A stretch of 64,000 bases of DNA, from the NCBI RefSeq assembly GCF_000307105.1, contig NC_018645.1, positions 35,001 through 99,000 on the forward strand. The letters run 5' to 3'. A model generated the notes under the pieces. The model made no database searches and had not been told where the DNA came from. It worked only from the letters and a program-made list of their open reading frames with translations. Below are positions 7,211-55,768 of this stretch, one piece after another. The position numbers were made by a program, and so were the translations under genes. This stretch comes from Desulfobacula toluolica Tol2 (GTDB lineage Bacteria > Desulfobacterota > Desulfobacteria > Desulfobacterales > Desulfobacteraceae). The first letter of the stretch is position 1. Each line of letters begins with the position of its first letter.

Positions 7211-8635
7211 TTAGAATCGCCGGGTCAATTTTTCCAGCTTGTTCCAGAGTGTATGGTCTTTGATTTGTGATCCAAGGGTCCAGGGGAAAACAACGGTTTC
7301 GCGGGGCCGTCTGTCCAGCCAGAACCAGCCGGAACAAAGCCCCGGCTCTTTGGCACAAGCAAGCCATACAATTGTGTCCGCACCTTGTTGTGGTGTTCTT
7401 AAAATTGAGCGGGTGAATGAGTGAAATCTTGGTAATGAAGACTCGATTCCCGGTGTGTCAACCCATCCAGGGTGCATGGCATGAACAACAATTTTTTTAT
7501 TTTTCAAGCGTTTTGCCCAAAGTTCCGTCAGGATGACAATCCCCCGCTTGGCTCTTGCATATGCCTTTGATCCGTCATATGGCAATATCTTGTTCTGGAG
7601 ATCGTTGACATCAATTTTCTGCGTATACATTCCGCCTGAAGAAACATTTATGATCCTGGCACCACCTGACTTGCAAAAAACAGGGATCAGATTTTGAGTC
7701 AGGTAAAATACGCCCAAAAGATCTGTGGCAAAAGTCTTTTCAAATCCTTCTTTTGTTTCCATACGTTCATTGAACAATGCTCCTGCGTTATTGATGAGAA
7801 TATCAATCGTTTTCTTTTTTTCTGCAAGCTGTTTGGAAACACGTTTAATATCCGCCATCAAGCTCAGGTCGGCCACTAAAAAATCAACATGGGTATTGCC
7901 GGTCTGTTCAATTATTTCACGTTGAATTTTTAAGGCTTTTTCACGATTTCGGGCAATGATGGTTAAAAAGGCATTTTTTCGGGCAAGTTCAAAAGCCGCT
8001 GCTTTTCCGATACCGGATGTTCCACCCGTGATCACAACGCGTTTGCCGTAAAGAATATCAGTGTTCTTTGTCCGGAACCGTTTTCCTATGGCATATCCAA
8101 ATTTGCTGAACATCATCATACCGGGTAAAATAGTATGGTCTGCAATATAATCAATTATATTTGATCCTGAAGAAAACATTTTGCCTTTCCGGGGAAAATT
8201 AAAATCCGGGTTCAAGGTTTTTTCAAGCCCCTGGATTGCGATTTTTCCGATTCGCTTTATCACAGGCACAAGCAAGGGTTCAATGATGTTTGCAAACCCG
8301 GAAAATTCAATTGTTGCCTGATAATCAATTCGAGTGCCGGATGGCGTTTGGATAAACAATATGGTATCTGTGGCGGAATATGAAGTCCCTTTGCCCTTCA
8401 GAACCACTCTGGAAAAAGGTTCATATTCTGTCACCACATATTGCATTTTGGGCCGAAACGGGCCGTATTTGAGTATCAAATCATACTGAGTTCCCGCACT
8501 GACATCTCCCAGGCTTTTTTTTACGGACGATACCACACCCGGATCCCAGTTCTGTATGTTGGAAAACTCACTGGTGTAGTTAAAAACGCTTTCTATGGGC
8601 TTTTGAACAAGGATGGATTCATTTAATACTATCAT
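7211..8635 (-). CDS. SRPBCC domain - short-chain dehydrogenase fusion
   Basis: A 474-residue two-domain protein. Residues 1 to about 145 form an SRPBCC/polyketide-cyclase-like domain (N-terminal VQKPIESVFNYTSEFSNIQNW), a fold that binds hydrophobic ligands. Residues about 196-474 form a short-chain dehydrogenase: NAD(P) motif TGGTSGIG at 203-210, NNAGALFNE, INVSSGG and the catalytic YARAK. An AAAGGGGAC ribosome site precedes the ATG. It converges on the CFA fusion gene, and SDR genes recur in amine-oxidase/DUF1365/CFA clusters. A plausible reading is an oxidoreductase acting on a lipid delivered by the SRPBCC domain. The substrate is unknown. Confidence 0.85.
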   Translation of the reverse strand: MIVLNESILVQKPIESVFNYTSEFSNIQNWDPGVVSSVKKSLGDVSAGTQYDLILKYGPFRPKMQYVVTEYEPFSRVVLKGKGTSYSATDTILFIQTPSGTRIDYQATIEFSGFANIIEPLLVPVIKRIGKIAIQGLEKTLNPDFNFPRKGKMFSSGSNIIDYIADHTILPGMMMFSKFGYAIGKRFRTKNTDILYGKRVVITGGTSGIGKAAAFELARKNAFLTIIARNREKALKIQREIIEQTGNTHVDFLVADLSLMADIKRVSKQLAEKKKTIDILINNAGALFNERMETKEGFEKTFATDLLGVFYLTQNLIPVFCKSGGARIINVSSGGMYTQKIDVNDLQNKILPYDGSKAYARAKRGIVILTELWAKRLKNKKIVVHAMHPGWVDTPGIESSLPRFHSFTRSILRTPQQGADTIVWLACAKEPGLCSGWFWLDRRPRETVVFPWTLGSQIKDHTLWNKLEKLTRRF

Positions 8636-8810
8636 GTCGTCCCCTTTGGTTAAAAATTGTTTTCTAAGGGTGGCAGGTTTAATTTAATTGTACTTTAAAA
8701 TATGGCCACGATTTAAAAGACTTCAACAATAAATAAAAATCGTCTATACTCTATGATTCACACTATTGCTTATGGCTGCACGCAAATAACCAGGAAGAAT
8801 GGACAAAAAA

Positions 8811-9707
8811 ATGATCAGATTCGGCCTGTGCTGCATATTTAAAGAACACCCCATAAAATTTCGGAAAACAACCGCTAAATACCTTTCAAAGTTTTCTATT
8901 GACGTGCAAAAAAAACGCCTGTCAGACTTGTGCCTGACCAATGCCCGAAATTTATTGAAAGCTCTGGAGTTTTGTTATCACAACAAGATTGGGGCCTTTC
9001 GGATTAACAGCCAGATTATGCCGTTAAAAACCCACCCGGATGTGGGGTATGATATTGATGATCTGCCCGGTTCGGATCACATCATCAAAGCGTTCAGGGC
9101 CTGTGGTGCTTACAGTCTTAAAAACAATATCAGAACGTCCTTTCACCCGGATCAGTTTATTGTTCTATCGTCTCCGAATCCAAATGTGGTGAAGCGTTCT
9201 GTGGCCGAACTTAATTATCAGACCCAGGTCGCCCAATGGGTCAATGCGGATGTAATCAACATTCATGCCGGTGGTGTTTACGGAGACAAACCGGCTGCAC
9301 TCAAACGGCTTGCCAAAACGATTGAAAACCTTGATGATCCGGTCAGGAAACGACTGACTCTTGAAAATGATGACAAAAGCTATACGCCGGAGGATCTTTT
9401 TCCTGTTTGTCATGATATGAAAATTCCTCTGGTTTACGATGTACACCATCATAGGTGTTTGAAAGACCGGTTTTCAATAGAGCAGGCAACAAAACACTGT
9501 GTTCAAACCTGGGACCGGGAACCATTGTTTCATATCTCGTCACCCAAGGACGGCTGGGGCGCATCAAATATCCGAAAACATCATGACTATATAGATAAAA
9601 ATGATCTGCCTGCAATCTGGCTTTCAATGGATATTACAATCGAGGTGGAAGCAAAGGCCAAGGAACTGGCAATACGAAAACTCATGAAAGAATTAAATAT
9701 GCTATAG
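8811..9707 (+). CDS. uvsE: UV DNA damage endonuclease
   Basis: A TIM-barrel endonuclease that nicks DNA 5' to UV photoproducts and other lesions, an alternative to nucleotide excision repair. The 298-residue product matches the family from FGLCCIF at the N-terminus. It shows the metal-site segments TSFHPDQFIVLSSPNP, VINIHAGGVYGDK, LTLENDDKSYTPEDL and VYDVHHHRC, whose His, Glu and Asp residues are the expected metal ligands. An ATG at 8799 is also possible (4 extra residues, with AGGAAG only two bases before it). The start at 8811 fits the family N-terminus better. The gene stands alone. Confidence 0.9.
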   Translation: MIRFGLCCIFKEHPIKFRKTTAKYLSKFSIDVQKKRLSDLCLTNARNLLKALEFCYHNKIGAFRINSQIMPLKTHPDVGYDIDDLPGSDHIIKAFRACGAYSLKNNIRTSFHPDQFIVLSSPNPNVVKRSVAELNYQTQVAQWVNADVINIHAGGVYGDKPAALKRLAKTIENLDDPVRKRLTLENDDKSYTPEDLFPVCHDMKIPLVYDVHHHRCLKDRFSIEQATKHCVQTWDREPLFHISSPKDGWGASNIRKHHDYIDKNDLPAIWLSMDITIEVEAKAKELAIRKLMKELNML

Positions 9708-10110
9708 TCTGCAAAAATGAGCATATGTGGGTCAGAAAGAATTTCATGTGTTTTTTTTGTCAGGAATGCCGTCCTTGATGATTTTACAGCCGTTCTATAC
9801 AGTCGGCCTAAATTTTTATTTTTTCTTGCACGCATTGATTTTTTGATGTAATCATAAAAGCATATATAAAATTTCTGGAAAAAAATATTCTACCGATCTT
9901 GGATGTTTACGATTCTGATCTGATGTTTGTTACATACCTTTTTAATTTTTAAATATTGTTACTTTAATACGTTTAAGCCTGATTGATTTATGATTTAACC
10001 TCATGTTTCCTGTTCTTTCACTAAATTAATGTTTGGCAGGAAATATAATACTGAACATTGATAAAATATTATTGTTCGGTCATATGATAACCGTCAAGAA
10101 AGGAGAAATC
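9708..10110 (+). other. A+T-rich intergenic region without recognisable gene
   Basis: About 400 bases between uvsE and the next gene. I see no frame with a ribosome site and no strong hairpin. It is strongly A+T-rich and probably holds the promoter of the downstream small protein, but no clear -35/-10 pair could be assigned. Confidence 0.5.
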
Positions 10111-10413
10111 ATGGAAGTAAAAGATTATTGCAAAGCAATGCTGGCCGAAGTTACAGCCTGGAAAGAGAAACTTGAGGCTATGAAAAAAGTTGCTGACACC
10201 TATGGCTCAAAAGAAAAAGAAAAAATCCTTCCGCTTATCGGCCAGTTGGAACAGGAGGTGACTACTGCTCAGGTGAGGGTGGATCAGCTGAAAACAGAGT
10301 GCCCGTCTGACTGGTCACCCATGAAAAATGAACTGGATGATTTGTTTGGAACGATTGGCAGCAGTGTTGATCGGGCCTGGAAAGACCTTCCTCCTGGAAA
10401 TGTTGGAGGGTAG
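10111..10413 (+). CDS. Small helical (coiled-coil) protein, unknown function
   Basis: A 100-residue soluble protein, mostly charged and helical: EVTAWKEKLEAMKKVADTYG and LIGQLEQEVTTAQVRVDQLK give heptad-like spacing. A short C-terminal part (MKNELDDLFGTIGSSVDRAW) ends in Pro/Gly. It has no transmembrane segment or signal peptide. The start is fixed by a textbook AAAGGAG site 5-6 bases before ATG; longer upstream frames lack one. I do not recognise the family. It is monocistronic and followed by an inverted repeat. Confidence 0.75.
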   Translation: MEVKDYCKAMLAEVTAWKEKLEAMKKVADTYGSKEKEKILPLIGQLEQEVTTAQVRVDQLKTECPSDWSPMKNELDDLFGTIGSSVDRAWKDLPPGNVGG

Positions 10414-10423
10414 AAACTTCAAT

Positions 10424-10458
10424 TGCACTGGTTTGGTTGATTAAACTGAACCAGTGCA
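10424..10458 (+). terminator. Inverted repeat, possible terminator
   Basis: TGCACTGGTT (10424-10433) pairs perfectly with AACCAGTGCA (10449-10458) across a 15-base loop, just after the small helical-protein gene. There is no good T-run on either side, so intrinsic termination is uncertain. It also lies between convergent genes. Confidence 0.5.
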
Positions 10459-10537
10459 GTGCCGAAATTTTGCTGACAAAAATTAATTGATGCATATTTT
10501 GTTTGAAAAAAACAGTCGATTTTGCAGGCCTTTGATA

Positions 10538-11488
10538 TCAAAAGTAATTTCTCAGTTTCAGTTCAAACGGGTGCGGGTTCAGATAGGTCTGGATTTTCAG
10601 CCAGGGCTGGTCGTATTTCATGACATAGTGCCGGATCAGGGTAATGGGGACGATGAGGGGAACATATCCTGAGCGGTATTGATCAATGATGGTTAACAAT
10701 TCGTGTTTTTCCGAACCGGTCAGATTCCGTTTGAAATATCCCAGGATATGGTGCAGTACATTGATGTTTTTTTTCACCGTTGTTTTCAACTTCAGGGAGT
10801 TTAATAAAATTTTTTCATAGGCATCAAACAATTGATCCATATCCAGGGTTTTCCCCTGGGCGACAAGTTTTCCAAGCTTTCTGTACAGGTCCTGGTTGTG
10901 GGAAAGAATCAACAATTTGTTCCGGGTATGGAAATCAACAAGCCCTCCGGGCGTTCTGTTTTTTTTCAGCAGATCCCGCCAGCGCTGGAGCGAAAAGATG
11001 GCTTCAATAAAATTTTCGCGAAGTTCGGGATCATGGAGTCTGCCGGCCTCTTCTACCGGGACCCTGGGAAAATGTTGTGTAAATGCCCTGGCAAACAGGC
11101 CTGTGCCGGTTTTACGCACCTTGCCGTCGTCTCCATACACCCTGATCCGGTACAACCCGCTGCTCGGGGATTTGCTTCTAAAAATAAATCCGCACAAATT
11201 TTCTTGTTCAAGAGTTTTTAATTTTGCCGGTATCCAGTCTTTCATCTGCCGGGTTTTATCCTGCCTTGTCTTTTGGGTGACAAGCTTCGGGTTCTCAGGG
11301 GTTCCGACCAGTCTTACCGCCTCCCTGGGAATGGGCATGCCGCATTCCACTTCCGGGCACACGGGAACATACTTGGCAAACAGTCCCAATGTCTGTGTCA
11401 GGAACCGGTCATGACTGTGACCACCGTCATATCGAACCTTGTTGCCGAGCAGACAAGAACTGATACCGATTTTTATGGGGGTAAGCAT
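10538..11488 (-). CDS. DUF523-DUF1722 protein (TudS-like/YbgA-like)
   Basis: A 316-residue two-domain protein. The N-terminal DUF523 domain (about residues 1-155) shows SSCLLGNKVRYDGGHSHD and YVPVCPEVECGMPIPREAVRL; conserved cysteines here bind an iron-sulfur cluster in characterised DUF523 enzymes (thiouracil desulfurase TudS). The C-terminal DUF1722 domain (about 190-316) shows FHTRNKLLILSHNQDLYRKLG and SGYVPLIVPITLIRHYV, as in E. coli YbgA. The two-domain order is common, but the physiological substrate is unknown. The start at 11488 is chosen for AGGAG six bases upstream rather than the longer frame to 11524. Confidence 0.88.
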   Translation of the reverse strand: MLTPIKIGISSCLLGNKVRYDGGHSHDRFLTQTLGLFAKYVPVCPEVECGMPIPREAVRLVGTPENPKLVTQKTRQDKTRQMKDWIPAKLKTLEQENLCGFIFRSKSPSSGLYRIRVYGDDGKVRKTGTGLFARAFTQHFPRVPVEEAGRLHDPELRENFIEAIFSLQRWRDLLKKNRTPGGLVDFHTRNKLLILSHNQDLYRKLGKLVAQGKTLDMDQLFDAYEKILLNSLKLKTTVKKNINVLHHILGYFKRNLTGSEKHELLTIIDQYRSGYVPLIVPITLIRHYVMKYDQPWLKIQTYLNPHPFELKLRNYF

Positions 11489-13273: not shown

Positions 13274-13437
13274 CACGGGCAGATCTGTTATTTCAGTTTG
13301 GTTTGCCCACAACAAAGATTGAAAGTCTCGGTGTGAATTTTTTAAGATTTTCATATAACGGCCATGGCAGATCACTCTGCCACAACAAATAATAAAAGAT
13401 ATTTAATTTCAGCAGGTTAAAATTTATTTCATATAAA
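13274..13437 (-). repeat. Dispersed hairpin repeat, copy D (two modules)
   Basis: The most complete copy, with two modules in tandem. Module 1 reads CACGGGCAGATCTG ... GTTTGCCCACAACAAAG and ends at TTTTCATATAA (13348-13358). Module 2 follows directly as GGCCATGGCAGATCACTCTG, CCACAACAAATAATAAAAG, TTTCAGCAGGTT, and ends again at TTTCATATAAA. TGGCAGA and TCTGCCA in module 2 make a perfect 7-bp stem. The copy sits 3 bases after one gene and about 20 bases before the next. Confidence 0.85.
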
Positions 13438-32370: not shown

Positions 32371-33237
32371 ATGAAATATATAGGTGCCCATGTCAGTGCC
32401 GCCGGAGGTGTGCAAAACGCTCCTTTAAACGCTCATCGCATCAAAGCAACGGCTTTTGCCCTGTTCACAAAAAATCAGCGGCAATGGCATGCCGCCGCTC
32501 TGACAAAAGAAGCCATTGACTCTTTCAAGGAAAATTGCAGCAGATACGGCTATACACCGGACCGGATACTTGCCCATGACAGCTATTTGATCAACCTGGG
32601 ACACCCGGAAAAATCTGCCCTGGAAAAATCCAGGGCTGCATTTGTTGATGAGCTTCTGCGGTGCAGCCAATTGGGGCTGACCACCTTGAATTTTCATCCT
32701 GGCAGCCATTTGCAAAAGGGAAAAGCCATGACAGATACCAGTATTACAAAATGCCTGAAAACTATTTCAGACTCTTTGAACCTGGCATTGGATAAGACCA
32801 AAGGGGTGACGGCCGTCATAGAAAATACGGCTGGCCAGGGGACCAACGTGGGATTTTCATTTGAACAGATTGCACAGATGATTCAGGGGGTGGAGGACAA
32901 AGAACGTATCGGGGTGTGTATTGATACCTGTCACGCTTTTTCCGCAGGATATGATCTGAAATCAGCCAGAGGATTTGAAGATACCTGGCGGCAATTTGAC
33001 GATATCATCGGGTTTCAATACCTGAGGGGAATGCACCTTAACGACACAAAAAAGGCATATGCCTCACGGGTGGACCGGCATGAAAGCCTGGGGAAGGGCA
33101 ACCTTGGAATGGATGTTTTCCGGCGCATCATGGTTTCTCCTCAATGGGACAATATTCCCCTGATATTGGAAACCCCGGACAATACTCTGTGGGCCGGAGA
33201 GATTGCTCTTTTAAGGCAATGTAAGCACCTGGACTAA
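32371..33237 (+). CDS. nfo: Endonuclease IV (AP endonuclease)
   Basis: Zinc-dependent AP endonuclease of base excision repair, 288 residues (usual length). It starts with the family N-terminus [18 protein letters not shown]. Metal-binding and catalytic segments follow: [79 protein letters not shown] and the C-terminal [27 protein letters not shown] precedes the ATG. Bases 33165-33221 of its 3' end recur as a truncated copy at 41777-41833, on the far side of a G+C-rich gene block. Confidence 0.95.
33165..33221 (+). repeat. Direct repeat 1: nfo 3' end (left flank of 8.6-kb block)
   Basis: This 57-bp stretch inside the nfo 3' end matches 41777-41833 in the same orientation at 50 of 57 positions by direct alignment, including the uninterrupted TGTGGGCCGGAGAGATTGC. 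It is the left member of the pair flanking the TonB receptor to AraC block. Confidence 0.85.
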
Positions 33238-33393
33238 AATTTTTTCCGATTCCAGCTTTGAAGACGGCCTCTCAATCAGCAAAATTCATTGCTATGTACA
33301 GGAAGTAACTTGTGTCCAGGTGTTTATTGCTTTAGAGAAAAATAAGTGCCTGAGCAGAAAAAATTCTATAAAATCATAATGAGGGTCACCTTT

Positions 33394-35469
33394 TTAAAAT
33401 CTGTAGGCAATGGTGGCCCCAAGGCTGCGGGAGGGGCCGTCAATGCCGACGATCGAATTTAAAAACGGATTGATAAATGTCATATACTCCTTATCAAGAA
33501 TGTTTTTCCCCCACAGGGTAAATTCAAAATTTCGCCACTCATAGCCCAGGCGCAGGTTCACGATCTCATAGGCCCCTTGCCGGGCTGTGTTGGCCGAATC
33601 CCCGTAAAAGGGACCTGTGCCCAGAAGATCGACCCGGCCGAACAGTCCCATGGACGACCGGTATTGAAAGCCGAGGTTGAAGGTGTACTTGGGGGCGTAG
33701 GTCAGATAATTACCTGAATAATCCTTTTCAATCAGGGCACTGCCCTCCCTGACTACGGTCGTAAAATCGTCGTACACGGCCCGGTTCACTCCAAGTCCTG
33801 CAAAGAAGTCCAGTCCCTGGATTGGTCTTGCTTCAATCTGGAGTTCAACCCCTTTTGAGTGGGCATTGGCCGCATTGGAGATGGTCAGCACGGCAAGTGT
33901 GGGGTGTAGTTGGGAGACCTGCTTGTCCTCCATTTGGATATAAAAGGCTGACAGGTTAACCATAAGCCGTTGGTTCAGCCATGTGGATTTTACCCCCATT
34001 TCATAATTCCAGGTGTATTCGGGTCCGTAGTCAAAGGTTTCCCTGGTGCCGGTGTTCCCCCAGTTAAAGCCCCCCGGCATATATCCTTTGGCAGCGGATG
34101 TATAGGCCATGACATGTTCTGACAGATCATAGTCCAGTGATAACTTGGGCAAAATTTTATGATAACTCAACTCCCCGTCATAGTCCCTGTTCTGCACCGA
34201 ATCCTGAAGGTATCCTTCTGTGGTATGGTAATCCAGCCGCAGGCCTGCGGTAAGGTGCAGCCTGTCAAAAGGCGTATACCTGCCCTGGCCGAAAATCGCT
34301 GCTCCCTCGGTTTCTACGTCCGTAACAGGGTTCATGTACACCATATTGGCAGACAGGATTTCGTACTTGTAATCAAAAAAAGATTCCTCACGGAAGGCAA
34401 AAAAACCTGCCAGCCATTCAAAGGATCCGTTTTTTATGGAGGATATCCTGAATTCCTGGCTGTAATGGCGTTCGTCCATATACAGGGGATTGATCCGTTG
34501 GTTGGAAGGGTCGTCCCACATATCACAGTCATTGACTTTATCCAGGCTCTGGTTTTGGATGCCTGACACGGATAAAAAGGTGAAAGCAGGGGCGTAATAC
34601 TTTATGCGCAGGGTCTGGCCGTTCCAGTCCTGGTTCAGATAAGCATCGCAATCACTTTTGATTTTATTCTTCCCGGTTGCATGATTTCCGTACAGAAGTC
34701 TTCCACCGGCCCCGTGGTCATCGGCATCAGCAGCGTCAGCGGTTAAAGAGATGTCCCAAAGATCCCCCGGTGTCCACCTGAGGGTGAACCTGCCTGCCAG
34801 GTGGGAAATATCCGCAGCGCTCTCATCTCCTGTGGAGAGATTTTCCAGGTGTCCGTCCGAAGATTTGTATTGAAAAGCGCCGCCCAGATACAGCGTATCT
34901 TTGATCATAGGGCCCTTGAGACTCAGCCCTGTCCTGAAGGTATTTTGGCTGGCGTATTCTGTGAGGATTTGACCGTTAAACTCATTGTCCGGCTGCCTTG
35001 TGACGATGTTGATCACGCCGGATTCTGAATTCCTTCCGTACAGGGTACTCTGGGGACCCTTGAGGATTTCCGCACGTTCAAGGTCGAACAGGTCGATGTT
35101 CTGCATATAGTGCATGGGATAACTGGCATCATCCACATAAAACCCTGCAGGAGAATAAGTACATCCCCTGAAAGGAGAGATTCCCCTGATCACCACAATA
35201 TGCTCGCATGATCGGTCCATCATGTTGACATTGGAACTCATGCGCACAAGATCGTTTGTTTTCTCCATACCGGCATCTTCTATATCCGTTCCTGAAAAGA
35301 CATCCATGCTGACGGGGACATTCTGGGCGTTTTCCTCTCTTTTCTGGGCTGTTACCACAATACTTTCCAATTGAAAGTCATCCTTGCTTTCCAGATTCTT
35401 TCCATGTACATTTGTGCCCCACATCATTGCGATCAGCATTGCGATCATACACCTATAAAACTGCTTCAT
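33394..35469 (-). CDS. TonB-dependent outer-membrane receptor
   Basis: A 691-residue outer-membrane transporter. A signal peptide (MKQFYRCMIAMLIAMMWGTN) is followed by a TonB-box-like ESIVVTAQKREE, the plug domain (about residues 40-150: VPVSMDVFSG, VVIRGISPF, AGFYVDDASYP, ILKGPQSTLYGRNSESGVIN) and a beta-barrel ending in LGATIAYRF with the terminal Phe needed by the Bam machinery. The plug resembles siderophore or cobalamin-type receptors, with the substrate unknown. Upstream in-frame starts to 35577 are rejected because AAAGGAAA and a clean signal peptide mark 35469. It lies 46 bases behind the giant CoA activase gene, in the same direction. Confidence 0.9.
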   Translation of the reverse strand: MKQFYRCMIAMLIAMMWGTNVHGKNLESKDDFQLESIVVTAQKREENAQNVPVSMDVFSGTDIEDAGMEKTNDLVRMSSNVNMMDRSCEHIVVIRGISPFRGCTYSPAGFYVDDASYPMHYMQNIDLFDLERAEILKGPQSTLYGRNSESGVINIVTRQPDNEFNGQILTEYASQNTFRTGLSLKGPMIKDTLYLGGAFQYKSSDGHLENLSTGDESAADISHLAGRFTLRWTPGDLWDISLTADAADADDHGAGGRLLYGNHATGKNKIKSDCDAYLNQDWNGQTLRIKYYAPAFTFLSVSGIQNQSLDKVNDCDMWDDPSNQRINPLYMDERHYSQEFRISSIKNGSFEWLAGFFAFREESFFDYKYEILSANMVYMNPVTDVETEGAAIFGQGRYTPFDRLHLTAGLRLDYHTTEGYLQDSVQNRDYDGELSYHKILPKLSLDYDLSEHVMAYTSAAKGYMPGGFNWGNTGTRETFDYGPEYTWNYEMGVKSTWLNQRLMVNLSAFYIQMEDKQVSQLHPTLAVLTISNAANAHSKGVELQIEARPIQGLDFFAGLGVNRAVYDDFTTVVREGSALIEKDYSGNYLTYAPKYTFNLGFQYRSSMGLFGRVDLLGTGPFYGDSANTARQGAYEIVNLRLGYEWRNFEFTLWGKNILDKEYMTFINPFLNSIVGIDGPSRSLGATIAYRF

Positions 35470-35515
35470 ACCGTTTCCTTTCATCTTTGAGTCATTCATA
35501 TTATCCGGCCGGGGG

Positions 35516-38500
35516 TTAGAGATAGAATAGAAATGCCTCAATCCGGTTTCTGTCCGCCTGGTTTGGGTTGCCGTCAAGGGTCAGGTTGAGCAGGGGCTTT
35601 CCAAAAGGGATGCCCCGGCTTAAGGCGTTCAGGGAAATTCCCGTATTCTCGTACATGGGTGATACTGTGATGATTCCGTCAATGGACGGGCCAAGGTCCA
35701 GGCATTTGGCCATCCTGTACCGACCGTTGGCCCCGGCGTAGAACCCCAGGGTTTCATTGGCAAGGGAGGCTAAGCGATCCGGGCCGGATGAAAAAACACC
35801 GATTCCTGAAAGGGCTGTGTCTATTACGCTTATCCTGTCGGCCAAATTCTGGATCCGTTCCCGCAGCATATCTCTTTTTTCTTTGCCGTTCTGCTCAATC
35901 CAGTCCTTCCATAGCATGAGCATGTATTCGCTCATGGGAGAATAAAGCAACCTGTATCCCATAGATTCAAGCCTGGAGAAATGGTGGCCCGTCAGAAAAT
36001 CGTTGAACAGCAACAAGGGATCACCTGTCACAAATATCTGTTTTTTATACGCCTTAACCTTTAATTCTTTGCCGATGGTTTCGGCCAGGGATGTAAGATC
36101 CTTCAGGCCGACTTCCCCTGTTCGCATCAGATCCAAAAGGGATGCCAGGTGGGAATTGCGGGATCCGGCCGGGGCCAGTTGGATAAGGTCCCCGGCCAGA
36201 AGCCCTGTAAAGAGCCGGTCAAGTTCTTCGGGATTTTCTGATACGGCATCCTCAATAAAGGGGGAGACAAGGACGGCTTCCTCATACCCTGCCCCGTCCA
36301 GCCGGGTCCGGACAAAGCGGCTGTATTGCCCGTCCACCTCGGCCCCTTCGGTCTGGGGGATGAAAAAGGCGGCCCTTTCCGGGTTTGCTTCCCTGTCCAG
36401 GGTTTCCAGGACATCCCCTAAAAGGGCGGTGAGGGAATAGTACTCGTTGGAGGTGGTATGGCGCTTGCCACGGTTGAGGGAATTCTCCCCGGCCGGGTCC
36501 ATCACCTTTGCACAAATCCCCTGCCGGGTCAGGATCTCCTTGAATATTTGTGAATAAGGGGAAAGGTTGGGCAGGTGGAGCCGCATGTCCTGGGGCAAGC
36601 TTTGGATGTCCGGGCGTATATTTATACAAGAATGGGACGGGGCCAAAGCATAGTCTGCCATGGGGCCGACCGTTTGGGCCGGGATATGGGAAATACTGTT
36701 CAAAAAGGCCTCCAGCCGGGTTATGACGCCCACGGTGGAGGAATGTTCATCCACCTCAATGTTCAAAAAGGGCTTGGGAGACATGATTTCGCTGAAAAAA
36801 TGGGAGACCACGGAATCTGGGCCGCAGCCGTGGTGGGTCAGAAGAATGGCGTAGAGGTTGGGATGGGTACGGATCAGATATGCCGGGTCCAGGATATGCT
36901 GGGCAAATGGCCAGTACATATTGGGATGCTCCCGGAAGATATTGCCTTCAGGCAGGTCGAAAAACGGGATGACTTTATATCCCATCCCGGACAGCCGGTC
37001 GGGAATCCCCAGATTGAGTATAGGATCGGCCACACCGTAGATTTTTGATATCAGGACAAAGACCTTTTCATCCGGGGCCATGGTTTCAAGTACCTTTTCA
37101 CGGTGAAGAATCAGCCGGTTTTCACAGTCCTGCATAGCCTTCATGGCAGCGCCCAGGGCCTTCATTGTTTCATTCTTACCCCGTTCGAGCCGGCTGCCCA
37201 GGCCGGTAAAGCTTTGGGACATAAATTCCTTGCCCAGGTGAAAGGCAATGGTGGGAGCAAGCAGGGTGATGCCGGTTTTTTCCAGGTCCATGGCATGGTT
37301 CGCCATTTTAAAGGCTATCTGCATATAGGCACATCCGTAGTTTTGTCGGGATTCTGAATTTGGATGGAAAACCGTGTACAGGTCTGGAAAGAAGATATAA
37401 TCCACCTTCTGCCTTATCAGCTGGGCAATGTGGCCGTTGACAAGTTTTACGGGAAAGCAGGTTTCATCCTGGGCGTGTTCCTGGGCCAGGGCAATGGTCT
37501 CTTTGGTCGAAGGCTCAGACAGGACAACATTGAACCCGAGGGCTTTAAAAAAAGTGTGGAACATGGAAAACATGCCGAATGTGAACAGGGCCCTTGGCAT
37601 GCCCACGGTTTTCTTTAATGGATCATGGGAAGGGGCATACCCTTGGAAAACTATCTCCTGGATTTCACGGCTGAACCGGTTTTTCCCCGGGGGGGCTGTG
37701 GGAAGCTTGCTTGCGGGCTTTTGGGGCCGAAGCCCTGTTTCAGTCCCTTCCACAGATTCCCTGGCCAGGAGGGCCGCACCCATGGCGCCGGTCACACTGA
37801 AAAAGCGGGGTATTCGAATTTGTTTTCCCAGAACGGCCCTGAAGGCGTTGATCACCCCCTGGTTATGGGCCAGTCCCCCCTGGAACAGGATATTGTTTCC
37901 AATTTTTTTTTGCCCCACCACCCGGTTGAGATAGTTTTTCACCACTGAGTAGCACAGACCGGCAGCCAGGTCTGTTCTGGACACCTCCCGGCTCAGGTGG
38001 GCAGCCACGGTGGTTTCGATGAACACGGTACACCGCTCTCCCAGGTCCACTGGGTGGTTGGCATTCAGGGCCGTGGGCCCGAAATCCTCAACAGGGATGT
38101 CAAACCGCTTGGCCTGTTCCTCAATGAACGAACCGGTACCGGCTGCACAGACCTTGTTCATCTGGAAATCCTTCACCCGGCCCTCTTTTAAGCGGATGAA
38201 TTTCGAGTCCTGCCCCCCGATTTCAAATATGGTGTCCACTTCCGGGTTAAGGTTTACAGCTGCTTTTGCCTGGGCCGTGATTTCATCCTTGATGATATCG
38301 GTGCCCATCATTTTGCCGATCAGGTAGCGGCCGGACCCGGTCACTCCTGTGCCTTTGATGTTCATTTTGGGGTCAAAAGTATTTTTAAAGGCATTAAGGC
38401 CCTGATTTACCGCGGCAACCGGGTCTCCCTTGGTCCTGAGGTATTGAAAGTCCACTACCTCATTTTCCGGGTTAATCAGTACCAGGTTAGTACTGGTGGA

Positions 38501-39475
38501 GCCCACATCAATGCCCAGGTAAAGGGCCTGGTCCGGTTTGAATGCACTGGAGATATCGTGCATACCCCTGGCGTCGTTAAGTCCGTAGGAGACCAGGGGA
38601 GGTAGGCTGATGCCGTCATTTGTCCGGCCGGGCAAGGTGTGACGCTTACTTGATGAGAGGCTCTCCAAAAGATACTGAAACCGGGCTTCCAGTTTTTCCT
38701 TGCGGGCAGTCACGGCTGCGCCGATTGCGCCCATGGCGCTGAAATGTTCGGGAATGATCAGATCCGTTTCCTTAAGGTTAAGCTCCTCCCTGAAAGCCCT
38801 GACAATGGAACGGTTATTGGCGACTCCACCGGTAAATAGGATGGGGCATTCCATGGGCAGCTGTTTCATGACGCTGACCCTGAAATTCCTGACCACGGCA
38901 TAGGCCAGGCCCTGGAGAATATCTGCCACGGGCACCCCGCCCTGTTGGTGGTGGATGATATCGGTTTTGGCAAAGACGCTGCACCGCCCGGCGATTCTGG
39001 GGACGGACCTGGCCTTCTCCGTATAGGCGGAATACTCTTCCAGGTTAAGGTTAAGTCGTGAAATCTGTTCCTCCAGGAATGATCCCGTGCCTGCGGAGCA
39101 GTTGGCATTCATGGCTATTTTGATGCCTTTATTATCCTCTTCCTTCAACCCGGTAATATATTTGGCGGTCTGGGCCCCGATCTCCACCACAGACCGAGAA
39201 CCTGTGCTAAGACTTCTGGACGCCTCCACAAGGGCGGTCACCTCGTTGACACTATCGACCCGATCTTTCAGAATTCTTTTGCCGCTGCCCGTAACAGCGC
39301 CAAACTTTAAGTCCTGAACAGAAAAGGCCTCTTTTATTTTTTCCAGATGAATGGCAAGTACGCCCATTATATCACCCCTGTGCAGGGTGTAGCAGGTATG
39401 GACGACCTGGTTCCGGGCATTAACAACGGCTGTTTTTATCGCCGCATATCCCAAATCTATTCCAAATGCAAGCAT
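35516..39475 (-). CDS. Giant acyl-CoA dehydratase activase (BadF/HgdC type, DUF2229)
   Basis: A 1319-residue protein with two BadF/BadG/BcrA/BcrD-type ATPase domains in tandem. The first (residues 1 to about 260) has FGIDLGYAAIKTAVVNA, NANCSAGTGSFLEEQ and AGRCSVFAKTD. The second (about 315-570) has YLGIDVGSTSTNLVLI, KVCAAGTGSFIEEQ and GERCTVFIETT. The two Cys-containing loops are where HgdC-type activators hold a bridging [4Fe-4S] cluster. Residues about 620-1319 match DUF2229 and a HgdB/double-cubane-like C-terminal region (YIFFPDLYTVFHP, LTHHGCGPDSV). It should couple ATP hydrolysis to low-potential electron transfer, but the acceptor is unknown. TAAGGAG precedes the ATG. Confidence 0.88.
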   Translation of the reverse strand: MLAFGIDLGYAAIKTAVVNARNQVVHTCYTLHRGDIMGVLAIHLEKIKEAFSVQDLKFGAVTGSGKRILKDRVDSVNEVTALVEASRSLSTGSRSVVEIGAQTAKYITGLKEEDNKGIKIAMNANCSAGTGSFLEEQISRLNLNLEEYSAYTEKARSVPRIAGRCSVFAKTDIIHHQQGGVPVADILQGLAYAVVRNFRVSVMKQLPMECPILFTGGVANNRSIVRAFREELNLKETDLIIPEHFSAMGAIGAAVTARKEKLEARFQYLLESLSSSKRHTLPGRTNDGISLPPLVSYGLNDARGMHDISSAFKPDQALYLGIDVGSTSTNLVLINPENEVVDFQYLRTKGDPVAAVNQGLNAFKNTFDPKMNIKGTGVTGSGRYLIGKMMGTDIIKDEITAQAKAAVNLNPEVDTIFEIGGQDSKFIRLKEGRVKDFQMNKVCAAGTGSFIEEQAKRFDIPVEDFGPTALNANHPVDLGERCTVFIETTVAAHLSREVSRTDLAAGLCYSVVKNYLNRVVGQKKIGNNILFQGGLAHNQGVINAFRAVLGKQIRIPRFFSVTGAMGAALLARESVEGTETGLRPQKPASKLPTAPPGKNRFSREIQEIVFQGYAPSHDPLKKTVGMPRALFTFGMFSMFHTFFKALGFNVVLSEPSTKETIALAQEHAQDETCFPVKLVNGHIAQLIRQKVDYIFFPDLYTVFHPNSESRQNYGCAYMQIAFKMANHAMDLEKTGITLLAPTIAFHLGKEFMSQSFTGLGSRLERGKNETMKALGAAMKAMQDCENRLILHREKVLETMAPDEKVFVLISKIYGVADPILNLGIPDRLSGMGYKVIPFFDLPEGNIFREHPNMYWPFAQHILDPAYLIRTHPNLYAILLTHHGCGPDSVVSHFFSEIMSPKPFLNIEVDEHSSTVGVITRLEAFLNSISHIPAQTVGPMADYALAPSHSCINIRPDIQSLPQDMRLHLPNLSPYSQIFKEILTRQGICAKVMDPAGENSLNRGKRHTTSNEYYSLTALLGDVLETLDREANPERAAFFIPQTEGAEVDGQYSRFVRTRLDGAGYEEAVLVSPFIEDAVSENPEELDRLFTGLLAGDLIQLAPAGSRNSHLASLLDLMRTGEVGLKDLTSLAETIGKELKVKAYKKQIFVTGDPLLLFNDFLTGHHFSRLESMGYRLLYSPMSEYMLMLWKDWIEQNGKEKRDMLRERIQNLADRISVIDTALSGIGVFSSGPDRLASLANETLGFYAGANGRYRMAKCLDLGPSIDGIITVSPMYENTGISLNALSRGIPFGKPLLNLTLDGNPNQADRNRIEAFLFYL

Positions 39476-39750
39476 GGATTCTCCTTAAATTAATGTGTTG
39501 CCCTTGGGAGGCTAAAGCCCCCGGCATGGCATTACTGCGCAAGTAATAATCCAAACAGGGAAGCTGTTTCTACTCTTGTGGCATTTTTTTTTGCTCTTTG
39601 CGGATTTTTTTTATTCGATTTTGCCGGTTTTGTTGTTCAGGGGTAAAAAAAAATGTTTGCCGGGCAGAACACAAAAAAAAATATCCATATCATTGCCGGC
39701 AGCTGGGGCATTTCCCCGATCTGGAAATAATAATGTAATACGGAGTTGAG
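39476..39750. other. Divergent intergenic region of the receptor/AraC block
   Basis: 275 bases between the divergent activase and methyltransferase-side genes. It is A+T-rich in the centre with several A and T runs (CATTTTTTTTTGC, AAAAAAAAATG) and probably carries both promoters and AraC-type sites. I could not assign -35/-10 boxes with confidence. Confidence 0.4.
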
Positions 39751-39753
39751 ATG

Positions 39754-39948
39754 ATGAAACAAATTAAACAGGTGATGATTGATTTCCCCATTGATCATGC
39801 ACAAACCGTGGCAGCGGTATTAATTGCTGCACTCTATCAACAGGCCTCTTTCTGTCCGGTTTTGAAATTGATACAGGCCCCGAGAACATGTTTGAGGACT
39901 CAGAGCCGTTCCGGGTATTTCATAATAGGAGAATTCCATGATATATGA
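39754..39948 (+). pseudogene. Short ORF, possibly frameshifted remnant
   Basis: A 64-residue frame with GGAG before ATG that begins plausibly (KQIKQVMIDFPIDHAQTVAA) but turns basic and odd after QQASFC. In the next frame the DNA from about 39850 encodes an acidic, protein-like GFEIDTGPENMFEDSEPF that ends at a TGA (39939-39941) overlapping the methyltransferase ATG. This looks like one small gene with a frame change near 39840. The family is not recognised. It may equally be a chance frame. Confidence 0.3.
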
Positions 39949-40540
39949 AACGAAAAAAAATGGCCGACACACTTCCGGGCACAGGGGCCAGGGACCGAGC
40001 AGTTTCTGGATGCAGAGCCACGAACCTTTGTTTGATGCCCTGGGCATCTCACCGGGACAGCATATTCTGGATCTGGGTTGTGGGGCTGGTGACTATACCC
40101 TGGAGGCAGCCCGCCGGACAGGGACTGTCGGCTGCATCACCGCACTGGACTACTGGCCCCCCATTGTGGATGCCTTAGAAAAGGCGGCCGGGGCCGCAGG
40201 TCTTCCCCAGGTCCGTGTCCTGAAGGCCGATATCACTAACCCTCCCTTACCGGTCCGGAATAATGCCATAGATCTTTGCATGGTGTTCACGGTGCTGCAC
40301 ATCTTTGACTTGAGCCGTTATAAAGAAGCTATATTCGGGGAAATGGCCCGGGTGATCAGGCCCGGGGGATGCCTGGCCGTGCTGGAATGCAAAAAAGAGG
40401 AGTGGTCCTTTGGCCCACCGGTCCACATGCGCCTAGCCCCGGAAGAGATTGAGACCTTCATCAGGGGATGGGGTTTTAAAAAAAGGGATTACAGGGATTT
40501 CGGGTACAACTATCTGCTTAGCTTTACCCTTGACGCCTAA
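39938..40540 (+). CDS. Class I SAM-dependent methyltransferase
   Basis: A 200-residue methyltransferase with the SAM motif I ILDLGCGAGDYTLEAAR (about residues 44-60), motif II region ITALDYWPPIVDALEKAA, KADITNPPLPVRNNAIDLCM (motif III) and ARVIRPGGCLAVLECKKEE (post-III). This is the UbiE/arsenite-methyltransferase-like type; the substrate is not evident. AGGAGA lies six bases before the ATG. It precedes the AraC regulator gene by 150 bases and is divergent from the activase and TonB receptor genes. Confidence 0.85.
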   Translation: MIYETKKNGRHTSGHRGQGPSSFWMQSHEPLFDALGISPGQHILDLGCGAGDYTLEAARRTGTVGCITALDYWPPIVDALEKAAGAAGLPQVRVLKADITNPPLPVRNNAIDLCMVFTVLHIFDLSRYKEAIFGEMARVIRPGGCLAVLECKKEEWSFGPPVHMRLAPEEIETFIRGWGFKKRDYRDFGYNYLLSFTLDA

Positions 40541-40690
40541 AATCTGAAAGCAGCCTTTCTCAGGTGTGGCGGATCAGAATCATTTTTACTTTTCGGTTAT
40601 TATGATCTAACATAGACGCTTCAGGCACGAACTTCACCCCATTGAACTGTGAACTGTAAAAATGGGACCGGCAAAATAGAGGAGATTCGG

Positions 40691-41659
40691 ATGCAAGAGA
40701 AAAAAAGCCCCAGGCTGTTTTACTTTAAACCTTTCCCTGGTTCGGACGGAAGCTCCCCTAATGAATCTGTATCGTGGGGGCACAGGGAGGTCTGTATCCG
40801 GCCGGGCCTGTGGATGAGTCTGATTAATTTCACCCCATCCAGTCAGGTCTGCCTTGAATACGAGAAACAATTCCCGGTCATTGATTTCGGATTCGTGATT
40901 TCCGGAAATATTCAAAAACAGAGCCAGGGACCGGATTCATACCCTGACGAGCTACAGGTCAGAAGCGGCATCAGCGGTGTTCGTCTGGAAAACAGGCAGT
41001 CCGGCTCATTTGTCGTTCCCGCCCAGCAGGAGCATCAGATTCTTCATCTTCACATGACCCTGCCTTTTTTTAGAAAAGTGCTAAAAGATGAATCCCAGGT
41101 ACTGCCAAAAGGCCTGCGGGCCGTATTAAAGGGGGATATGCATGTCGAATTTACAAGCACAAGGCCCATGACTCCGGATATTCAGTCCGTCGTGTACCAA
41201 GTGTTGAACACCTCAAGCAACGCCTATCCATGGTCACTTTACCTGGAGGGCAAAAGCCTGGAACTGCTTTCCCTGCACCTGGCGGCATTAAGCATTGATC
41301 TCCGGAAGTCAAAGGGTGGCATGCTCAACAGGAGTGAAAAAGAGCGGATCAAAACTGCCAGGTCCATCCTGATCAAGGATCTGCAGTTTCCGCCAGTCCT
41401 CCATGACCTGGCAGCCATGGCCGGTCTGAGCGTGGCCAAGCTTCAGGCCGGGTTCAAGCAGGCGTACGGGATGAGCGTGTTTGATTATTTCAGGGAGTAC
41501 CGGATGCAGAAGGCAAGACAGCTTTTGACGGAGACGGAGACCAACGTAAGCGAAACCGCCTGGCAGGTGGGATATGTCAATGTCAGCCATTTCAGTGCAG
41601 CCTTTAAAAAACGCTTCGGCATTCTGCCCAAGCATTATCTGAAAATGCACCTGGTATAG
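40691..41659 (+). CDS. AraC family transcriptional regulator
   Basis: A 322-residue regulator with an N-terminal ligand domain (about residues 1-200; VIDFGFVISGNIQ, SGSFVVPAQQEHQILHLHM). The C-terminal double helix-turn-helix has DLAAMAGLSVAKLQAGFKQA for the first and VSETAWQVGYVNVSHFSAAF for the second, ending FGILPKHYLKM. The layout resembles PchR/YbtA-type siderophore-responsive activators, which control neighbouring TonB receptor genes. The start at 40691 is chosen for GAGGAG six bases upstream. Repeat copy F and the truncated nfo tail follow. Confidence 0.88.
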   Translation: MQEKKSPRLFYFKPFPGSDGSSPNESVSWGHREVCIRPGLWMSLINFTPSSQVCLEYEKQFPVIDFGFVISGNIQKQSQGPDSYPDELQVRSGISGVRLENRQSGSFVVPAQQEHQILHLHMTLPFFRKVLKDESQVLPKGLRAVLKGDMHVEFTSTRPMTPDIQSVVYQVLNTSSNAYPWSLYLEGKSLELLSLHLAALSIDLRKSKGGMLNRSEKERIKTARSILIKDLQFPPVLHDLAAMAGLSVAKLQAGFKQAYGMSVFDYFREYRMQKARQLLTETETNVSETAWQVGYVNVSHFSAAFKKRFGILPKHYLKMHLV

Positions 41660-41672
41660 AAATTTATCCGGA

Positions 41673-41758
41673 TTTATATGAAAATTGTTGCAAATTGAAC
41701 TGCGACTTTCATGTTTTGTTGTGGCAAACCAAGGTGAAAGACCATGTCTGCCCGTGAG
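41673..41758 (+). repeat. Dispersed hairpin repeat, copy F
   Basis: TTTATATGAAAATTGTTGC, then CTGCGACTTTCATGTTTTGT, TGTGGCAAACCAAGGTGAAA and CATGTCTGCCCGTGAGGG. This is a nearly complete module 1, ending about 18 bases before the nfo 3' fragment and so lying at the junction of the nfo-flanked block. Confidence 0.8.
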
Positions 41759-41776
41759 GGAAAAAATGCTCAAAGG

Positions 41777-41833
41777 ATTGGAATCCCCGGATAATAACTT
41801 GTGGGCCGGAGAGATTGCCCTTTTAAAGCAATG
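41777..41833 (+). pseudogene. Truncated nfo 3' fragment (direct repeat 2)
   Basis: The encoded [19 protein letters not shown] corresponds to [19 protein letters not shown] at the C-terminus of the intact endonuclease IV at 32371-33237. DNA identity is 50/57 in the same orientation. Nothing upstream of ATTGGAA (41777) resembles nfo: the repeat copy F lies there instead. The frame continues to 41933 without a recognisable protein. This is a gene-end relic left by an insertion, duplication or replacement involving nfo. Confidence 0.8.
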
Positions 41834-41981
41834 GAGAAAAATAACAGTTGAAATGCATTTTTTGCTTCATTCTGCGATCATCAAATGTATAATGGATTTT
41901 ATGTGTGACCGCAAGCAACAGGAAAATCAATAAAAAGACAAGCGGTAATAAGTCAACCCCCAAATGGACAGAATAAAGATA

Positions 41982-43175
41982 TTAATGAATAAGGCGCACC
42001 TCATATGGTTTTTGGTTTTTAAGTACGGAAAAAACAACATGAAGCAATTTATTGGCGACATGACTAATAGCCACCAGATGCTTTTTCCCCTTAGCCTTCT
42101 GTTTTTCGTAGACAGTTCTAAACATGGGGTCCTTTGCCACCAAGGCTGCAACTTCGGCAGCCTGGATAGCAGCTGTGCGCAGATAACGACTACCCCGCTT
42201 AGACATTTTGCCTTTGCCTTTGTACTGTCCGCTTTCATTGAGACGAACGTCAAGCCCGGCAGCTGCAACCAATTTTCGGGCCCCGTTTTTTTCTTCTGGA
42301 TGAAAAACCGGAAGTACCTCTGCCAGGATGGTAGGAGCCCAAACCGGTCCGATACCAGGTATGGTTTGCAACAGTTTTTGATTCTTTTTCATATATTTTT
42401 TAGCCTGTTTTTCAAGTTCTTCAATTTGATGCAACAGAATATTCATTCTTTGAACAAGGAATTTAATTTCAAGGGCAAAAGACAAATTGGAGGCAGACAA
42501 AGAGAAGGAGTTTTTTGCAGCACTTTTAAGCCGTTTGGCGTGTTCTCGTCCCATATGGCCTTTGCTGGCTTCTTTAAGAATTCGGGTAAGCTTTCTGATA
42601 TCAATTTTTTTAATATCTTCAGCCGTAGAGTACTGGGCAAGCAACTGTCTGCTGGCAGCACCGAAAATGTCAGAAAAATGCTCGCTGTATTCTGGGAAAA
42701 CAAGGTCCAACAGGCCAATAAGGCGTTGTTTTTCCGCAACAAATGTTTGACTGCATTCATAGCGCAAACGAGTCAGATTACGCAACTGGCGGACTTCATC
42801 ATCTGGAACAGCAGAAAATTTTGGATCAGCTTCTCTCAAGATATTGGCAATAAGTTCGGCATCTACAGAATCCGTTTTAGTTCCTCTGATACCTGCATTA
42901 CGCCTTGCCGAAGTCATCAAAGGATTGATCAAACGGACCTGGAATCCGGCATTGGAAAGAAAATGGTAAAGTATCATCCAGTAATGACCGGTGGCTTCCA
43001 TGCCAATAAGCAGATTTTCTATGGAAAAGCCAACTTGGTTGATCCGATCCAAGAGCCGGTTCACTTCTTCCAGGGTATTGGTAAAAGAGAAATTTTTAAA
43101 TACTTTTTTACCATTGTCATCCAAAAGCGCCGCAACATGTTTTCGTTTTGCAATATCAATTCCAAGTGTCCACAT
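41982..43175 (-). CDS. IS110 family transposase
   Basis: A 397-residue DEDD transposase. The N-terminal RuvC-like domain shows LGIDIAKRKHVAALLDDNGK and GMEATGHYWMILYHFL, then GTKTDSVDAELIANILRE, carrying the acidic residues. The C-terminal Tnp20 domain shows LLQTIPGIGPVWAPTILAEV and LVAAAGLDVRLNESGQYKGK, then MSKRGSRYLRTAAIQAA, with the conserved Ser of the family. AAAGGAG fixes the start at 43175. It appears intact. IS110 elements lack terminal inverted repeats and use a bridge RNA encoded in their non-coding end, so the element's boundaries cannot be set from one copy. Confidence 0.92.
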   Translation of the reverse strand: MWTLGIDIAKRKHVAALLDDNGKKVFKNFSFTNTLEEVNRLLDRINQVGFSIENLLIGMEATGHYWMILYHFLSNAGFQVRLINPLMTSARRNAGIRGTKTDSVDAELIANILREADPKFSAVPDDEVRQLRNLTRLRYECSQTFVAEKQRLIGLLDLVFPEYSEHFSDIFGAASRQLLAQYSTAEDIKKIDIRKLTRILKEASKGHMGREHAKRLKSAAKNSFSLSASNLSFALEIKFLVQRMNILLHQIEELEKQAKKYMKKNQKLLQTIPGIGPVWAPTILAEVLPVFHPEEKNGARKLVAAAGLDVRLNESGQYKGKGKMSKRGSRYLRTAAIQAAEVAALVAKDPMFRTVYEKQKAKGKKHLVAISHVANKLLHVVFSVLKNQKPYEVRLIH

Positions 43176-43345
43176 CTTTTTTTTACTCCTTTGCAGTTTA
43201 ATAAAACTGTTCAAATGGGGGTGACGCCGATGGAACACAGCCTCGCTGCTAAATCAGTGCAGATTCGCGCATCAAGCGGTAAGTGTAATAAACCGGCATC
43301 GGCGGTCTTTTTAAGAGGACATTACCTCAAGGAGAAAAAGCCGAA
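43176..43345 (-). ncRNA. Candidate IS110 bridge RNA region
   Basis: Non-coding segment directly upstream of the transposase start, where IS110-group elements encode their bridge RNA. It contains CAGTTT-AATA-AAACTG next to the ribosome site and a long-range pair, CGCCGATG (about 43223-43230) with CATCGGCG (about 43303-43310). These could frame the loops of such an RNA. The assignment rests on position and partial pairing only; the target- and donor-binding loops were not resolved. Confidence 0.3.
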
Positions 43346-43405
43346 CCCCGGCAGCCTTCCAGCTATTATGGCCAAAATAGCATTGAAAGGCAAATGTCAC
43401 GTAAC

Positions 43406-43490
43406 GCCGCAATCGCTGCGATTGCGGCACCCAACCAGCTGCGCTGGTTGGAATAAAAAAGGTATTGAAAAAGGCTATCGCCTTTTTCAA
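43406..43490. repeat. Three consecutive perfect short-loop hairpins
   Basis: Hairpin 1: GCCGCAATCG-CTG-CGATTGCGGC without the dashes (43406-43428, 10-bp stem, 3-base loop). Hairpin 2: CCAACCAGC / GCTGGTTGG (43431-43451, 9-bp stem, loop TGC). Hairpin 3: TTGAAAAAGGC / GCCTTTTTCAA (43465-43490, 11-bp stem, loop TATC). All are perfect and stand in a row between the IS110 element and the FmdE-like gene. They may be the leader of the FmdE transcript, part of the IS end, or its target. Confidence 0.65.
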
Positions 43491-43527
43491 GCCTGATTTA
43501 AACACCTTTATACGAGGAGATAGTATA

Positions 43528-52693: not shown

Positions 52694-52804
52694 TAAATGC
52701 CACGGCAGAAATGGCTTTTTTATACTGCAATCCGGTAACCTCGGTTTGTCCACAACAAAACATGAAAGTCATAGTTTGAATTTTTTAAGGCTTTCATATA
52801 AAGT
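52694..52804 (-). repeat. Dispersed hairpin repeat, copy H
   Basis: AATGCCACGGCAGAAATGGC, then ACCTCGGTTTGTCCACAACA, AAACATGAAAGTC and AATTTTTTAAGGCTTTCATA. The right half of module 1 is well kept; the left half is altered and longer than usual. It lies in the divergent gap (52570-52926) between rubrerythrin and the FGE-like gene, which holds nothing else recognisable. Confidence 0.75.
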
Positions 52805-55634: not shown

Positions 55635-55639
55635 CACCT

Positions 55640-55768
55640 TCATGTTTTGTTGTGGGCAAATCTGAGCGAAAGGCCAGGTCTGCCCGTGGCAGTTATATGA
55701 AAGAATTTTTAACCTGCTGAAATTAAACATCTTTCATTATTTGTTGTGGCAGGTCAATCTGCCATGTC
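55640..55768 (+). repeat. Dispersed hairpin repeat, copy G (two modules)
   Basis: CATGTTTTGTTGTGGGCAAA, then GGCCAGGTCTGCCCGTGGCA and GTTATATGAAAG; then module 2 with TTTTTAACCTGCTGAAATTA, TTATTTGTTGTGGCAGG and TCAATCTGCCATG. The order of modules is the reverse complement of copy D. It starts within 9 bases of the DUF89 start codons and ends 9 bases before a palindromic operator-like site. Confidence 0.85.

What the first reader, a model, noticed from the sequence alone, without database searches (positions are those of the whole stretch)
33165..41833. 8.6-kb block flanked by direct repeats of the nfo 3' end
The last part of intact nfo (33165-33221) recurs at 41777-41833 in the same orientation with 50/57 matches. 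Between them lie a TonB receptor, a giant CoA activase, a methyltransferase and an AraC regulator, in DNA visibly more G+C-rich than the surroundings. Insertion at a gene's 3' end that restores the gene and leaves a displaced tail is the mark of genomic islands; homologous recombination through nfo with foreign DNA would leave the same trace. No integrase is visible in the block.
Basis: partly seen in the sequence, partly recalled or inferred. Interest (0 to 1): 0.75.

Follow-up and report, generated by a model that had tools for sequence, protein, structure and literature searches.

The report
Gene cluster inserted at nfo end
In what is probably a marine sulfate-reducing bacterium, a four-gene cluster seems to have landed at the end of a DNA-repair gene and pushed a scrap of that gene to its far side: a small, ordinary genomic-island-like insertion with no mobility gene of its own.

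Summary
The last 57 bp of nfo (33165-33221) recur at 41777-41833 (50/57); a query from the nfo end matches nowhere else in the 5,197,905-bp genome. The homology is longer than reported: a dispersed MITE-like element (33222-33326) interrupts copy 1, and an 11-mer beyond it matches the DNA right after copy 2.

Copy 2 looks like the displaced native tail. It has S at codon 268, where 99 of 99 homologues have T. The 99 bp after it resemble the nfo-FmdE spacer of congener G008; the DNA after copy 1 does not. An IS110 element (~41932-43517) separates that spacer from FmdE.

The block is G+C-rich. A full-length activase of its type was found in 3 of 97 genomes: this one and two of another genus. Parts of the cluster recur in other genera. 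G008 has LUD, nfo remnant and FmdE without the block, but its nfo has lost the 3' end, so it is no clean empty site.

Verdict: acquired cluster inserted at the nfo 3' end; mechanism open (integrase, recombination or target duplication). No integrase and no recurrent use of nfo were seen. Ordinary, modest interest.

The parts
32371..33237 (+). nfo, endonuclease IV (288 aa); its last codons and stop lie in a MITE-like element
   Evidence: NCBIfam deoxyribonuclease IV model, 463.9 bits against cut-off 315
33165..33221 (+). copy 1 of the repeat: 3' end of present nfo
33222..33326 (.). dispersed MITE-like element (imperfect 11-bp inverted ends 33224-33234 and 33314-33324, TA on both sides)
   Evidence: 8 other matches at 7 other places in the genome, one of them only 22 bp; alignment; ends located
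33335..33345 (+). GAGAAAAATAA, continuation of the copy 1 homology beyond the MITE-like element
33394..35466 (-). TonB-dependent receptor (ORF open to 35577; start at 35466 is my choice)
35516..39475 (-). 1319-aa acyl-CoA dehydratase activase-type protein (BadF/BcrA-type ATPase, DUF2229)
   Evidence: relatives
39938..40540 (+). SAM-dependent methyltransferase
40649..41659 (+). AraC-family regulator
41673..41756 (+). one copy of a dispersed ~95-bp repeat; its last ~10 bases differ from the family consensus
41777..41844 (+). copy 2: displaced nfo tail (to 41833) plus the shared 11-mer
41834..41932 (.). probable native nfo-FmdE spacer
   Evidence: resembles the G008 spacer: 3 of 2000 dinucleotide shuffles and 7 of 584 real controls score as high
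41932..43517 (-). IS110 element (transposase ORF 41982-43238)
   Evidence: ends from partial matches in other genomes and one 69-bp piece in this genome
43528..44061 (+). FmdE-family gene, native right neighbour of nfo (ORF open from 43465; start chosen from the G008 homologue)

Best explanation
An accessory gene cluster (TonB receptor, activase, methyltransferase, AraC) of a kind found in other genera of the family was inserted at the 3' end of nfo, between nfo and its native right neighbour FmdE. The event left nfo with a working 3' end (copy 1) and put the original tail and the native nfo-FmdE spacer on the far side of the block (copy 2), where the tail has drifted. Other elements blur both ends: a MITE-like element at the end of copy 1, an IS110 element in the native spacer, a dispersed repeat near the right junction. 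Shown: the repeat, the MITE-like element, the IS110 element, the patchy distribution of the cluster. Inferred: that the block came from outside, the order of events and the joining mechanism. Within this model I put integrase-type integration with the integrase since lost at about 0.35, recombination with donor DNA that carried an nfo tail at about 0.3, long target duplication or other illegitimate insertion at about 0.25, anything else at about 0.1.
For: Two specific tail copies. S at codon 268 in copy 2, T in 99 of 99 homologues. The 99 bp after copy 2 resemble the G008 nfo-FmdE spacer; 99 bp after copy 1 score at the control mean. G008 has LUD, nfo remnant and FmdE with no match to block genes or IS110 between them. 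Full-length activase in 3 of 97 genomes, in none of the 25 other genus members searched. AraC relatives of 52% identity or more only in G066, G067, G068, G071, all of other genera. Same order and orientation of activase, methyltransferase and AraC in G071. GC3 0.58-0.64 in the block against 0.45 (LUD), 0.51 (nfo) and 0.42 (FmdE).
Against: G008 has lost the nfo 3' end, so a deletion there could have removed a block too. The spacer resemblance is short and gapped; with single-base shuffles 13 of 2000 reached it, and the copy 1 stretch compared is less A+T-rich (0.59) than the controls (0.62-0.73). GC3 near 0.6 also occurs in window genes outside the block, 0.605 at 24484 and 0.594 at 28291. No donor with nfo beside the cluster was seen. 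No gene trees were built.
Confidence: 0.65

Rival explanations
1. Remnant of an integrase-type genomic island: the nfo 3' end was the attachment site, copy 1 came from the element, copy 2 is the displaced chromosomal end, and the integrase gene has been lost.
For: Gene end plus displaced fragment flanking cargo is the mark of such islands (abstract of PMC4383910). The 19 bases TGTGGGCCGGAGAGATTGC are identical in both copies.
Against: No recombinase among the four genes. No other nfo locus of 99 shows a second tail beyond a 22-bp match. The 19-bp stretch occurs in no viral contig.
Confidence: 0.25
2. Homologous or homology-assisted recombination with foreign DNA that carried an nfo-like tail beside the cluster; copy 1 and perhaps more of nfo are donor DNA.
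For: The tails differ by 12%, close to the 15.5% nucleotide difference of FmdE between G000 and G008. The left edge of copy 2 falls at an arbitrary point inside a codon.
Against: No nfo beside the cluster in the stretches fetched from G066, G067, G068 and G071. The repeated stretch is short for homologous recombination (general knowledge). G+C along nfo in 108-bp steps shows no clear switch.
Confidence: 0.2
3. The block is old at this place in the lineage and G008 lost it together with its nfo 3' end; the second tail is the scar of an earlier insertion or duplication.
For: In G008 the nfo remnant stops at about codon 173 and FmdE homology begins 134 bp later.
Against: None of 25 other genus members has the activase at E <= 1e-200 or an AraC of 52% identity or more. 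It changes the timing more than the nature of the event.
Confidence: 0.15

Closest known systems
Integrase-type genomic islands that restore the gene they enter (Islander, PMC4383910, abstract and section list seen; islands at trmE and dusA, PMC8409611, start of abstract in a search listing only)
   Same: Target gene keeps a working 3' end, cargo follows, and a displaced fragment of the target marks the far end.
   Different: No integrase; target is nfo, not tDNA; the copies are only 88% alike; small cargo (about 8.4 kb).
IS110-family insertion sequence (NF033542)
   Same: Transposase passes the family cut-off, 257.7 bits against 140.
   Different: It lies outside the repeats and does not explain them; its guide RNA was not looked for.
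MITE (miniature inverted-repeat element)
   Same: About 100 bp, no gene seen, imperfect 11-bp inverted ends, TA on both sides, copies at 7 other places in the genome, some partial.
   Different: The partner transposase was not sought.
Activase-methyltransferase-AraC cluster of G071:C341
   Same: Same order and orientation of these three genes; a TonB gene follows 2.8 kb on.
   Different: The TonB gene stands on the AraC side, not behind the activase; identities about 47-58%.

Membership tests
Integrase-type genomic island at a gene 3' end | Regenerated target gene and displaced fragment as direct repeats at the two ends | tested here: met
Integrase-type genomic island at a gene 3' end | Encodes an integrase | tested here: not met
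   None among the four block genes; small or antisense ORFs of the block were not scanned
Integrase-type genomic island at a gene 3' end | Empty site in a close relative | tested here: inconclusive
   G008 lacks the block but has lost the nfo 3' end
Integrase-type genomic island at a gene 3' end | Same site used in other genomes | tested here: not met
   99 nfo loci, one 22-bp match only; flanks limited, 10 kb at most
Integrase-type genomic island at a gene 3' end | Cargo with a distribution unlike the host's relatives | tested here: met
IS110 element (41932-43517) | DEDD transposase with Transposase_20 domain | tested here: met
IS110 element (41932-43517) | Bridge RNA in a non-coding end | not tested
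   No search made for it
MITE (33222-33326) | Short non-coding dispersed element with inverted ends and target duplication | tested here: met
   TA on both sides fits a TA duplication, but no empty site was compared
MITE (33222-33326) | Related transposase in the genome | not tested
   No search made for it

The most novel reading that the evidence does not exclude
The 3' end of nfo serves as an attachment site for integrase-less islands moved in trans, and this block is such an element, carrying a metal- or cofactor-uptake cluster between genera of sulfate reducers.
Probability: 0.1. Interest if true: 0.4.

Novelty: new member of a known kind. Interest (0 to 1): 0.25.

Why it matters
It shows how a small accessory cluster may enter a chromosome at the end of a housekeeping repair gene without destroying it, and how later small elements (a MITE-like element, an IS110) can hide the scar, so that the flanking repeats look shorter than they are. 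For the organism it suggests the gain of a receptor-activase-regulator module shared with other genera of its family.

Tried and rejected
IS110-driven insertion of the block: rejected as the cause, because the element lies outside the repeats, in what looks like the native nfo-FmdE spacer.

The nfo tail as a common repeat: rejected.

The dispersed repeat at 41673-41756 as the cause of the junction: not supported. It ends about 20 bp from the tail, but of the six places seen in the window four lie just after the 3' end of an ORF (904, 3686, 13274, 41673), so its place after AraC is unremarkable; 52738 and 55636 do not fit that pattern.

A structured RNA for that repeat: none of 14 predicted pairs has a change on both sides, and Rfam at gathering thresholds has no match there.

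A donor with nfo beside the cluster: none in the stretches fetched from G066, G067, G068 and G071. Mobile carriers: AraC on plasmids only distantly (1307 records, all under 60% identity; best listed row 32%); a full-length but distant activase (39.6%) on a Paraclostridium plasmid in another gene context; nothing in viral contigs.

Literature: searches; one returned nothing. For 39, 49 and 50 I saw the listings with starts of abstracts. Of PMC4383910 I read abstract and section list, of PMC11887813 passages. The Tol2 genome paper was seen only as a reference, so I cannot say what it reports on this locus.

Left undone: gene trees of the block genes, structure prediction, a search for the transposase of the MITE-like element, one of the 12 genome searches.

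Full report
Setting. The window is part of a single 5,197,905-base contig (G000:C1:35001-99000). That size is the one I recall for Desulfobacula toluolica Tol2; no call names the genome.

Observation. The last 57 bp of nfo (33165-33221) recur at 41777-41833 in direct orientation with 50 of 57 matches (BLAST E 3.9e-13). In 15 shuffles of 4 kb the best match was 25-28 of 57. In the whole genome a 138-bp query from the nfo end matches these two places only (E <= 0.001, 22 of 22 candidates scored). The repeat is real and specific.

The repeat is longer than reported. From 33222, just where the match stops, a dispersed element begins. A genome search with 33222-33400 gave 9 matches: the query itself and 8 more at 7 other places, one of them only 22 bp. 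Aligned, they share a start TAAGCACCTGGAC and, where complete, an end like GTCCAGGTGTTTA: imperfect 11-bp inverted ends with TA on both sides, about 100 bp long, a MITE-like element. It supplies the last codons and the stop of nfo. Beyond it, after 8 more bases, GAGAAAAATAA at 33335-33345 is identical to 41834-41844 directly after copy 2. The 11-mer occurs twice on the + strand of the window and not on the other; 31 of 20000 random pairs of A+T-rich 30-mers share 11 or more bases. So the two tails probably shared about 68 bp or more, reaching past the gene.

Which tail is native. Six codons differ, three of them silently. At codon 268 copy 2 has S where 99 of 99 homologues have T; at codon 272 it has N (2 of 99) where copy 1 has T (25 of 99); at codon 282 copy 2 has the commoner residue, K. 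A change at an invariant residue fits a displaced, non-functional tail. In congener G008 the locus reads LUD, a 1385-aa ORF, an nfo remnant (residues 2-39 and about 145-173), then FmdE (88% identical), with no match to block genes or IS110 in between. The 99 bp after copy 2 (41834-41932) align with the G008 spacer with score 36; 3 of 2000 dinucleotide shuffles and 7 of 584 real A+T-rich stretches do as well. In an earlier version with single-base shuffles 13 of 2000 did. The 99 bp from 33335 after copy 1 score 22, the control mean, though they are less A+T-rich than the controls; a 66-bp stretch from 33328 scores 16. Native DNA thus lies most likely on the copy 2 side. Against this, the alignment is short and gapped, and G008 has lost the nfo 3' end, so one deletion there could have removed a block as well. 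FmdE was found in 21 of 25 other genus members; in the flanks held (1.5 kb at most, some cut by contig ends) an nfo piece stands beside it only in G008, so G008 is the only comparison.

The block. Between the repeats lie a TonB receptor, a 1319-aa activase with BadF/BcrA-type ATPase and DUF2229 domains, a SAM methyltransferase and an AraC regulator. GC3 is 0.58-0.64 against 0.45 for LUD, 0.51 for nfo and 0.42 for FmdE; two window genes outside the block also reach 0.59-0.61. Overall G+C is 0.51, as in 24.5-31.5 kb of the window. A full-length activase of this type was found in 3 of 97 genomes at E <= 1e-200: G000, G067 (67%) and G071 (58%); at most 6 candidates per genome were scored. AraC matched in 10 of 97 genomes at E <= 1e-20; identities of 52% or more occur only in G066, G067, G068 and G071, while the two other genus members with a match, G002 and G003, reach 41% and 31%. 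The TonB receptor matched in 9 of 97 at E <= 1e-60, best 51% in G071; of other genus members only G002 (35%). In G071 activase, methyltransferase and AraC have the same order and orientation, with a TonB gene 2.8 kb further on. G067 has methyltransferase-AraC and then activase. G066 has methyltransferase-AraC only, its AraC a 288-aa ORF matched in two pieces. G068 has a TonB gene and pieces of the other three. I read this as an accessory cluster that travels and decays within the family; no gene trees were built.

Function (inference). Receptor, AraC regulator, methyltransferase and activase suggest uptake and processing of a metal chelate or cofactor. The TonB siderophore-receptor model scores 200.8 against a cut-off of 223.5 and so is not reached. 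Genes near the clusters of G067 and G071 include RND efflux, MFS, O-methyltransferase, guanylate cyclase and FmdE-type proteins. I hold this loosely.

Right side. An IS110-family element lies between the native spacer and FmdE. Its transposase passes the family cut-off (257.7 against 140 bits). Partial matches in other genomes place its ends at about 41932 and 43517, some 10 bp before the likely FmdE start. A search with 41834-43464 found no second copy here (40 of 69 candidates scored); a 69-bp piece like its right end lies at 3,715,678. It is outside the repeats and does not explain them. Between AraC and copy 2 sits a copy of a dispersed ~95-bp repeat (41673-41756), whose end departs from the consensus near the junction.

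Mechanism. A gene with a working end, cargo and a displaced tail matches the principle of target-restoring islands (abstract of PMC4383910). But no integrase is among the four genes, nfo shows no repeated use as a site (99 loci, one 22-bp match), and no viral contig holds the 19-bp conserved stretch. Recombination with donor nfo DNA would explain the 12% divergence of the tails, near the 15.5% nucleotide divergence of FmdE between G000 and G008. A long target duplication with drift is also possible. Within the insertion model I rank these 0.35, 0.3 and 0.25.

Verdict. It is a new member of a known kind and of modest interest.

Noticed in passing
window 41673-41756, 3686-3781, 13274-13358, 52738-52802, 55636-55766, 863-963: Dispersed ~95-bp repeat family (consensus): at least 150 copies in this genome (150 candidates scored, a cap), found in 11 of 25 genus genomes at E <= 0.001 (27 in G005, 18 in G017, 7 or fewer in 8 others, none in G008). 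No Rfam match, no covariation; four of the six window places lie just after an ORF.
   Followed up: partly
window 33222-33326: MITE-like element that ends nfo: it supplies the last codons and the stop.
   Followed up: partly
window 41932-43517: IS110 element inserted about 10 bp before the likely FmdE start, so it may alter FmdE expression.
   Followed up: partly
L152 (G008:C55) 5102-5299: nfo is a remnant in G008, which has another full-length nfo elsewhere (G008:C53, 63%).
   Followed up: no
L241 (NZ_CP094935.1) 5001-8849: A full-length 39.6% identical activase lies on a 109-kb Paraclostridium bifermentans plasmid beside an ABC transporter and two cupin genes.
   Followed up: no
L194 (G066) 9143-10670: Methyltransferase-AraC pair: the last 83 residues of AraC are 88% identical to the window's, residues 9-214 only 69%.
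   Followed up: no
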